From assembly GCF_040409795.1 (NCBI RefSeq), contig NZ_CP099571.1:1869439-1933438 (forward strand): a stretch of DNA of 64,000 bases. The letters run 5' to 3'. The position numbers were made by a program, and so were the translations under genes. The notes beneath the pieces are model-generated. The model was not told the origin of the DNA, made no database searches, and saw only the letters and a program-made list of their open reading frames with translations. Source of the stretch: Polynucleobacter sp. MWH-UH19D. GTDB taxonomy: Bacteria; Pseudomonadota; Gammaproteobacteria; Burkholderiales; Burkholderiaceae. Shown piece by piece: positions 24,563 to 60,333 of this stretch (within the stretch, counting starts at the first letter, position 1; the number at the start of each line of letters is the position of its first letter).

Positions 24563-24625
24563 ATCATGCTCCAGCTAAATACGATCCAACGCTGGAGTCC
24601 AAACTCGCTAGCCGTTGAATCATGG

Positions 24626-24725
24626 GTTAGCGAGCGCAGTTGCAATTAGCAAATCCTTAAAGCATTTGCCCCTTCAAGCCTGGGGATGTGCCAAATTGAC
24701 AATCCTTGCAACGCTCCTTGAAGGT
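24626..24725 (-). promoter_or_regulatory. SAH riboswitch upstream of ahcY
   Basis: Read on the minus strand, the leader has the core of the SAH riboswitch: a CAAGGAGCGTTGCAA segment, the CCCCAGGCTTGAAGGGG segment whose CTTGAA pairs with the opening TTCAAG (helix P1), and the distal AACTGCGCTCGC whose GCGCTC pairs back to GGAGCG as the pseudoknot. This class binds S-adenosylhomocysteine and turns on ahcY. It lies about 65 nt before the ahcY ATG. The boundaries are approximate. The order of conserved blocks and the complementary arms make the call strong, though no covariance model was run. Confidence 0.88.
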
Positions 24726-59702: not shown

Positions 59703-59730
59703 AAATAGGCCACTAATTGGCGGCCTATTT
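59703..59730. terminator. Hairpin terminator between MipA-like and riboswitch genes
   Basis: AAATAGGCC and GGCCTATTT form a 9-bp stem with a 10-nt loop. On the minus strand it is followed by TTTTTTATTT, a good intrinsic terminator for the 63-residue gene of the riboswitch unit. On the plus strand the T-run is short, so it is a weaker terminator for the MipA-like gene. Confidence 0.85.
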
Positions 59731-59738
59731 AGCAAATG

Positions 59739-59930
59739 CTATTTTGCAATATTGAGCCGATTATGGCTCGACGAGCAAAAATCAACAATTACATCTGCAA
59801 AACTCAAGTAACGAGAATTGCTTTTTCTGAAACTGTCAATTTCGGCTGCCAAACGTGAGGTTTCATCTTTAAATCCAACATCTTCATACCCAGGATGGTA
59901 CGGCGCTTCTTCCACAAATTTATTGCTCAT
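59739..59930 (-). CDS. Hypothetical 63-residue protein controlled by a glycine riboswitch
   Basis: A 63-residue soluble-looking protein with no signal peptide or membrane helix and mixed charge (MSNKFVEEAPYHPGYEDVGF at the start). It has one Cys and one helix-prone central part (SRLAAEIDSFRKSNSRYLSFADVI). I do not recognise a family. AAGG lies about 6 nt before the ATG. It is the only open frame of note between a tandem glycine riboswitch and a terminator, so its expression should depend on glycine. Its role cannot be inferred beyond that. Confidence 0.6.
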   Translation of the reverse strand: MSNKFVEEAPYHPGYEDVGFKDETSRLAAEIDSFRKSNSRYLSFADVIVDFCSSSHNRLNIAK

Positions 59931-60019
59931 ATTTATACCTTACGTAATTAATCTTTAAGATCTATTAAAGATGCATCAAAATATTCTGCCAATGCAGAGC
60001 CAAAAGATAGGCAAATTAC

Positions 60020-60037
60020 TTAAGTAGAGTTGTGCAT
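60020..60037 (-). CDS. Possible five-residue upstream ORF in the riboswitch leader
   Basis: ATG-CAC-AAC-TCT-ACT-TAA (MHNST) has a GGGAG 6 nt upstream, a better ribosome site than that of the main gene. It sits between the riboswitch and the 63-residue gene. It could be a leader peptide in the expression platform. Short ORFs with a chance Shine-Dalgarno are common, so confidence is low. Confidence 0.3.
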   Translation of the reverse strand: MHNST

Positions 60038-60080
60038 GCTGTACTCCCAAAGCGATCCAAGACACACGTGGTGTATGGAT

Positions 60081-60269
60081 GCCGCTCCCCCTGTCCTTGA
60101 TACCTGAGAGATTCATGTCAAGCTATGCTTGACACTTGCTCCTTCGGTGCACCATTAGAGGTGACTCTCCAGACGGCAGTTAAAGTTAAGCAGTACATTC
60201 CTAGTAGATACCTGAGCGTTCATGGGAGTTTGCGCCTTCGGTGGAGGGCATGCCCTCACTCTCCTGCTT
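60081..60269 (-). promoter_or_regulatory. Tandem glycine riboswitch
   Basis: On the minus strand two aptamers follow each other, each with the three conserved blocks of this class. Aptamer 1 (about 60269-60188): GGAGAG, CACCGAAGGCGCAA, then GCTCAGG, closed by CTGCTT/AAGCAG pairing (P1). Aptamer 2 (about 60179-60081): GGAGAG, CACCGAAGGAGCAA, then TCTCAGGTATCAAGGACAGG, closed by GCCG/CGGC. Glycine binding turns on gcv or transport genes elsewhere; here no gcv or symporter gene is downstream, only the 63-residue gene. The structural match is very strong; the boundaries are approximate. Confidence 0.93.
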
Positions 60270-60276
60270 GTTGAAG

Positions 60277-60282
60277 ATTATA
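60277..60282 (-). promoter_or_regulatory. -10 box of the glycine riboswitch transcript
   Basis: TATAAT lies on the minus strand about 7 nt before the first base of aptamer 1, so transcription would start right at the riboswitch. No good -35 hexamer is visible at 16-18 bp. The region falls after the TauE-like gene stop, so the unit may be independent of that gene. Confidence 0.6.
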
Positions 60283-60333
60283 TCTGTGAATTGTTGCGCT
60301 TATCTAGTGAGTTTTACCTATGCTTCAAAAATA

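What the first reader, a model, noticed from the sequence alone, without database searches (positions are those of the whole stretch)
59703..60282. A tandem glycine riboswitch unit whose only gene is an unrecognised 63-residue protein
The minus strand has a TATAAT box ending 7 nt before aptamer 1, two full glycine aptamers, a possible leader peptide MHNST with GGGAG ahead, a 7-bp hairpin (TCTTTAA/TTAAAGA) close to the ribosome site, one 63-residue frame, and then a terminator. No gcvT, gcvH or sodium:alanine symporter is present. Glycine riboswitches are known to control such genes, so a short protein of unknown family as sole target is unusual. Inference: it may be a glycine-stress or one-carbon helper protein, or a regulator acting on other proteins.
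Basis: partly seen in the sequence, partly recalled or inferred. Interest (0 to 1): 0.78.

Follow-up and report, generated by a model that had tools for sequence, protein, structure and literature searches.

The report
Glycine switch with two-step translation relay
In many Polynucleobacter bacteria an RNA matching the glycine riboswitch family lies in front of a 63-residue protein that matched no genome of another genus searched, with a conserved 5-6-codon mini-gene between them whose translation is predicted to open the protein's ribosome site; the protein likely helps the cell handle glycine.

Summary
Two glycine aptamers (58.2 and 46 bits), the only ones in this complete genome, precede a 63-codon frame and a terminator. 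The frame is under purifying selection, matches no Pfam or NCBIfam family, occurs in 78 of 186 genus genomes (one weak hit dropped) and matched no other genus among 299 family and 250 order genomes. Of 79 loci, 68 have the riboswitch directly upstream. The region of its stop codon pairs with the region of the main ribosome site. Best reading (inferred): glycine gates the mini-ORF, and a ribosome ending there melts the helix so that the 63-residue protein is made. Riboswitch-uORF relays are known in Mycobacterium; a glycine version with a sequence-free mini-ORF and a genus-restricted small protein is a new variant. Protein function and ON/OFF polarity are untested.

The parts
60277..60306 (-). 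promoter-like site TAGATA-18-TATAAT just before aptamer 1
   Evidence: 10 of 12; shuffles give 2.1 on average; TATNNT at the same place in 37 of 44 loci
60181..60276 (-). glycine aptamer 1, with the 5' arm of the P0 kink-turn helix
   Evidence: RF00504, 46 bits; P0 complement in the linker in 42 of 44 loci
60081..60182 (-). glycine aptamer 2
   Evidence: RF00504, 58.2 bits
60051..60086 (-). hairpin AGCGGC..GATCGCT directly after aptamer 2, before SD1
   Evidence: RNAalifold consensus of 29 loci has this hairpin, 4 of its pairs with two-sided changes; in the minimum-energy fold of the window
60044..60048 (-). SD1, GGGAG, ribosome site of the mini-ORF
   Evidence: GGGAG/AGGAG-like site 5-8 nt before a start codon in 53 of 53 loci examined
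60020..60037 (-). mini-ORF ATG..TAA, five codons (MHNST)
   Evidence: length 6 codons in 48, 5 in 4, 16 in 1 of 53 loci; 14 of 14 held-out
60014..60024 (-). left arm of the long-range helix, overlapping the mini-ORF stop codon (CTTA-A-GTAATT)
59939..59949 (-). right arm of the long-range helix (AATTAC-G-TAAG), overlapping SD2
59938..59941 (-). SD2, AAGG, ribosome site of the 63-codon ORF
   Evidence: read from the sequence
59739..59930 (-). ORF of 63 codons, orphan small protein
59703..59730 (-). terminator-like hairpin
   Evidence: 2 such sites found, shuffles 0.4 on average

Best explanation
A tandem glycine riboswitch, a 5-6-codon mini-ORF and a 63-residue orphan gene lie in this order in one unit, and the unit likely works as a two-step translation relay in which glycine binding would let ribosomes onto the mini-ORF and a ribosome ending there would melt a helix that hides the gene's own ribosome site. 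Shown by sequence: both aptamers, the mini-ORF and its pattern of change, complementarity and co-change of the two helix arms, purifying selection on the gene. Inferred: that glycine is the ligand in the cell, that the switch is of the ON type (about 65%), that SD1 is what it gates (how is open), that coupling is by helix melting, and that the protein is a small partner-binding helper or regulator needed when glycine is high in cells without a glycine cleavage P-protein.
For: RF00504 tandem. Riboswitch directly upstream in 54 of 62 first-set and 14 of 17 held-out loci, in several different gene neighbourhoods. Mini-ORF in 53 of 54 and 14 of 14 riboswitch-linked loci; in 44 nearest-neighbour pairs start nucleotides changed 2 of 132, SD core 8 of 220, inner nucleotides 155 of 609 times, and 11 stop codons were swapped for other stops. 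None seen by eye behind 26 other glycine riboswitches of the genus. Arms: own duplexes -9.69 against -7.96 kcal/mol permuted, 0 of 5000 as low; held-out -9.91 against -8.81, 150 of 5000; 76.4% of cells paired against 21-40% slid. A ribosome footprint on the mini-ORF stop lowers the computed cost of opening SD2 from 3.88 to 2.58 kcal/mol (66 loci), a footprint downstream to 3.69, and in shuffled middles the drop is 0.14.
Against: RNAalifold does not return the long helix in either alignment. In one search the 3' letters dealt out anew pair nearly as often (74.4%), pairs with two-sided change (3 against 2.6) and pair types (9 against 9.3) are not unusual, and sliding by -1 or -2 gives 8 two-sided cells against 9. 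Folds of the window's own leader are no better than shuffles (z -0.75 and -0.61), and its own footprint effect is only 0.48 kcal/mol; over 1 kcal/mol in 33 of 66 loci. G117 has no mini-ORF, G023 one of 16 codons. Nine genomes keep the gene without riboswitch. No expression data of any kind. Relatedness of the sequences is not removed in the permutations.
Confidence: 0.5

Rival explanations
1. Landing pad: ribosomes that end on the mini-ORF reinitiate at the main start, and the helix mainly brings the two sites together instead of hiding SD2.
For: Precedent: PPE2 of M. tuberculosis is made mainly by termination-reinitiation from a riboswitch-controlled uORF (PMC11260477, section 22 read). Start and stop but not codons are conserved here.
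Against: The mini-ORF stop lies 55-108 nt before the main start in 52 of 53 loci, 39 in G023, with no overlap; the main ORF has its own site.
Confidence: 0.2
2. The same relay with OFF polarity: glycine hides SD1 and the small protein is made when glycine is low, for example to aid uptake or synthesis.
For: The P0 arm of the kink-turn is kept in 42 of 44 loci, a trait reported as more conserved in OFF types (PMC13104608, passages).
Against: A CUCCC tract of aptamer 1 (CTCCCATG in 47 of 50 loci) could form the P5-like pseudoknot, reported as frequent in ON and absent in OFF types, with the G tract after aptamer 2; aptamer 1 is at least as conserved as aptamer 2 (0.902 against 0.887), as reported for glycine-cleavage (ON) contexts (PMC6944388, passages).
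Confidence: 0.3
3. The mini-ORF shields the leader from Rho: glycine-dependent translation of it keeps transcription going into the gene, and the helix is secondary.
For: Rho-dependent termination with a translational platform is reported for the M. tuberculosis pe20 Mbox and its uORF (PMC12810186, abstract).
Against: A 5-6-codon ORF covers little RNA; no Rho site was tested here; the arm complementarity and footprint results are not explained.
Confidence: 0.12
4. The mini-ORF is a sensing leader peptide (attenuation by stalling at certain codons).
For: A short ORF before a hairpin and a gene, as in attenuators.
Against: Inner codons vary freely (155 of 609 nucleotides in neighbour pairs); glycine occurs in 6 of 53 peptides.
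Confidence: 0.05

Closest known systems
Tandem glycine riboswitch (RF00504), e.g. before gcvT
   Same: Two aptamers over the gathering score, P0/kink-turn arm, one expression platform
   Different: Target is an orphan small protein, and a mini-ORF with its own ribosome site is interposed; in 26 other glycine riboswitch loci of the genus (18 FAD oxidoreductase, 7 gcvT, 1 other; named) none was seen
B12 riboswitch - uORF - ppe2 of M. tuberculosis (PMC11260477; abstract and section 22)
   Same: Riboswitch-controlled short ORF whose translation is needed for the main gene
   Different: There the ORFs overlap and reinitiation is the main route; here the mini-ORF is 5-6 codons, its sequence drifts, it lies 55-108 nt upstream and helix opening is inferred
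Mbox - uORF rv1805A - pe20 of M. tuberculosis (PMC12810186; abstract)
   Same: Riboswitch acts on a small upstream ORF
   Different: That ORF encodes a conserved protein and the leader also uses Rho; here the peptide is not conserved
mgtQ-mgtB of Salmonella (PMC8092293; short abstract and section headings)
   Same: Translation of a short ORF frees a downstream ribosome site through alternative stem-loops
   Different: By its headings mgtQ needs particular acidic codons; no riboswitch is mentioned in what I saw
Glutamine riboswitch - gifB (IF17) of cyanobacteria (PMC6316151; passages)
   Same: An amino-acid riboswitch doses a small protein rather than an enzyme or transporter
   Different: Other ligand and phylum; no Pfam match of the present protein, so no sign of homology; partner unknown here

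Membership tests
Tandem glycine riboswitch (RF00504) | Two adjacent aptamers over the gathering score | tested here: met
   58.2 and 46 bits, cut-off 32
Tandem glycine riboswitch (RF00504) | Leader-linker P0 helix / kink-turn (frequent, not universal) | tested here: met
   Exact 6-nt complement in the linker in 42 of 44 loci
Tandem glycine riboswitch (RF00504) | Binds glycine and changes expression | not testable with these tools
   Needs probing and reporters
Riboswitch-uORF relay (M. tuberculosis ppe2 type) | Short ORF with its own ribosome site between aptamer and gene, under selection to be translated | tested here: met
   67 of 68 riboswitch-linked loci; start, SD and length kept, codons not
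Riboswitch-uORF relay (M. tuberculosis ppe2 type) | uORF stop overlaps or touches the main start | tested here: not met
   39-108 nt apart in 53 of 53 loci
Riboswitch-uORF relay (M. tuberculosis ppe2 type) | Main gene depends on uORF translation | not testable with these tools
   Only computed: footprint test
Amino-acid attenuator leader peptide | Codons for the sensed amino acid in the leader | tested here: not met
   Glycine in 6 of 53 peptides
Known small-protein families | Match in Pfam, NCBIfam, PADLOC, PHROGs or PDB sequences | tested here: not met
   None in Pfam, NCBIfam, PADLOC; best PHROGs E 0.075, best PDB E 0.49

The most novel reading that the evidence does not exclude
A two-stage translational relay of a new design: a tandem glycine riboswitch gates a peptide-free start-stop mini-ORF whose only job is to park a terminating ribosome on one arm of a helix, and so doses a genus-restricted, partly disordered 63-residue protein that stands in for glycine-cleavage control by binding and modulating a glycine enzyme, an amino-acid counterpart of the IF17 logic.
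Probability: 0.25. Interest if true: 0.82.

Novelty: new variant of a known kind. Interest (0 to 1): 0.62.

Why it matters
The usual targets of glycine riboswitches named in the passages I read are glycine cleavage and transport genes (PMC12452182, passages). Here one has been kept in front of a small orphan protein, in genomes where no glycine cleavage P-protein was found, with a minimal ORF between sensor and target whose translation and not sequence is conserved. If the relay works as inferred, it is a clean natural case of signalling from a riboswitch to a ribosome to a second ribosome site without overlap or stalling, and the glycine response gives a handle on what a genus-restricted small protein does.

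Tried and rejected
Control of SD2 by the TCTTTAA/TTAAAGA hairpin alone: dropped, not seen in relatives (by eye). Attenuation by leader codons: dropped (glycine in 6 of 53 peptides). Chance ORF: dropped. RNAalifold: did not return the long helix, so I used a named-helix count, own-versus-permuted duplex energies and an 8-mer register test after the stop (own 6.61 pairs against 6.26, sd 0.08, 51 distinct loci). Anti-SD1 search: three candidate tracts (aptamer 1 CUCCC, linker UCCUAA, CUCUC near the end of aptamer 2) in 50 loci, each strong in 56-86% of them, so how SD1 is hidden stays open. A simple terminator pattern found 32 of 62 and missed visible hairpins with short T runs, so I claim a terminator for the window only. 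No fold search: the model is one helix, pTM 0.40. Protein tree: few columns, G117 a long branch without a sure place; that the riboswitch-free clade lies inside riboswitch-bearing ones rests on midpoint rooting.

Rows dropped or odd: G117 (no mini-ORF); G023 (16 codons); two further loci with short upstream sequence; weak hits G069 second and G096 from locus counts; G146, which begins with GTG and departs at P13 and D17, was left out of alignment A4, and its spacer was cut 3 nt late; G664 and G673 were missed by my pattern, read by hand, and have no RF00504 match; A2 used 24 and A3 29 of the 53 spacers, the window's own in both, one identical copy (L073) in neither; 26 of 30 other riboswitch loci were printed; the anchor motif was found in 44 of 62.

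Full report
What is there. On the minus strand a promoter-like site leads into two glycine aptamers at 60181-60276 and 60081-60182, the only RF00504 matches in this complete single-contig genome. A hairpin, a GGGAG site, a five-codon ORF (MHNST, 60037-60020), 89 nt of spacer, an AAGG site and the 63-codon ORF (59930-59739) follow, then a terminator-like site. Upstream on the same strand is a TauE/SafE-family gene, downstream a convergent MipA-family gene.

The 63-residue gene is real. A protein search gave 143 relatives; the 120 listed are 58-82 residues long, without Pfam domain, a few named as Polynucleobacter hypothetical proteins. In 151 genus genomes there are 62 loci in 61 genomes (one weak hit dropped); in all 186 genus genomes held, 78 genomes (one weak hit dropped), which adds 17 loci. 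Matches in 299 family genomes (25 genera) and 250 order genomes (120 genera) lie in this genus only. Substitutions of 1345/1243/6262 by codon position, with 4860 synonymous and 2259 other codon changes in 241 pairs, against 598-718 and about 6600 out of frame, show purifying selection. Thirteen columns, eight of them in EAPYHPGYED, are invariant in the 70 sequences aligned (G146, which departs, was not among them). The model has a loose N-terminal part and one helix 26-61, mean pLDDT 77.9, pTM 0.40.

Gene and riboswitch go together. In the first set 54 of 62 loci have RF00504 matches directly upstream, in several gene neighbourhoods: near a phosphoglycerate-mutase-like gene in 29 genomes, a phasin-like or a solute-binding-like gene in 10-11, and others (gene names by eye). 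One genome has two units. The eight other loci, one clade, have no riboswitch match. Of 17 held-out loci, 14 have the aptamers, one belongs to that clade (G668), one has lost the leader (G664), and one keeps the mini-ORF with a decayed riboswitch (G673); in the last two the protein also departs at otherwise invariant residues. In all nine loci of the riboswitch-free clade GGAGG stands right before the start.

The mini-ORF. In 53 of 54 riboswitch-linked loci of the first set a start codon (52 ATG, 1 GTG) lies 5-8 nt after a GGGAG/AGGAG-like site, and the frame ends after 6 (48), 5 (4) or 16 (1) codons. In the exception, G117, the small gene itself follows the hairpin. In 14 of 14 held-out riboswitch loci the mini-ORF is there with 5 or 6 codons. 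The peptides differ (MHNST, MQNLCK, MYIPIE, MNTTPS, MTRYSG). In 44 nearest-neighbour pairs start nucleotides changed 2 of 132 times, SD core 8 of 220, inner nucleotides 155 of 609; 11 stops were swapped for other stops. Changes by codon position in 38 pairs of six-codon ORFs are 42/42/53. So starting and ending translation seem to be selected, the peptide not. In 26 other glycine riboswitch loci of the genus, read by eye, I saw no such ORF: the ribosome site serves an FAD oxidoreductase (18), gcvT (7) or another protein (1).

The helix. The stretch at the mini-ORF's stop codon is complementary to the stretch at the main ribosome site. Own pairs average -9.69 kcal/mol against -7.96 (sd 0.32) with right arms exchanged between loci, 0 of 5000 as low (52 distinct loci); 14 held-out loci give -9.91 against -8.81 (sd 0.57), 150 of 5000. 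In the 24-row alignment 76.4% of cells pair against 21-40% when slid; nine cells have two-sided changes against 3.4 in shuffles (1 of 500). But shuffled letters pair in 74.4% of cells, the number of pairs with two-sided change is not unusual, and sliding by one or two columns gives eight such cells. RNAalifold misses the helix. With a ribosome footprint on the mini-ORF stop, the computed cost of opening SD2 falls from 3.88 to 2.58 kcal/mol (66 loci); an equal footprint downstream gives 3.69, and shuffling the middle leaves a mean drop of 0.14 against 1.30. The drop exceeds 1 kcal/mol in 33 of 66 loci; in the window's own it is 0.48. The window's fold pairs UACUU and GUAAUU with AGGUA and AAUUAC, over SD2, but is no more stable than shuffles (z -0.61).

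How it likely works (inferred). Glycine-bound aptamers expose SD1; ribosomes translate five or six codons and stop on the left arm; the helix opens; SD2 is used. What hides SD1 is not settled. Polarity leans to ON; clues conflict (PMC13104608 and PMC6944388, passages).

What the protein does (inferred). A glycine cleavage P-protein over the cut-off is found in 25 of 151 genus genomes and in none of the 61 with the small protein; 65 have neither (Fisher p 6e-7, not corrected for descent). GcvT and GcvH were not searched on their own in this genome. A small riboswitch-dosed product recalls IF17 under a glutamine riboswitch (PMC6316151, passages). A modulator of a glycine-related enzyme is my best guess.

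Known versus new. A search of the held open-licence library for glycine riboswitch with Polynucleobacter gave no paper; five more searches listed none whose title or abstract start tells of a glycine riboswitch with a uORF relay. Riboswitch-uORF relays are in print for M. tuberculosis (PMC11260477, abstract and one section; PMC12810186, abstract). Hence a new variant of a known kind.

Noticed in passing
window 24625-24725 (-): SAH riboswitch, RF01057, 50.4 bits, over its cut-off.
   Followed up: no
L063 and L075 (genome G145): One genome holds two diverged copies of the whole unit at two loci, each with its own riboswitch and mini-ORF.
   Followed up: partly
L130 (G664) and L136 (G673): Decaying units: leader lost in one, riboswitch below threshold in the other, and in both the protein departs at otherwise invariant residues.
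   Followed up: partly
L086 (G117): The only riboswitch-linked locus without a mini-ORF; the small gene starts right after the hairpin, and the P0 arms have both changed (TATACAG with CTGTATA).
   Followed up: partly
L003-L032: Glycine riboswitches of the genus also precede an FAD-dependent (DAO family) oxidoreductase, gcvT, and in L023 a protein with only a weak ApbA match below the cut-off.
   Followed up: partly
L087-L094, L131: A clade that keeps the small gene without riboswitch and has GGAGG right before its start: possible switch to unregulated expression.
   Followed up: partly
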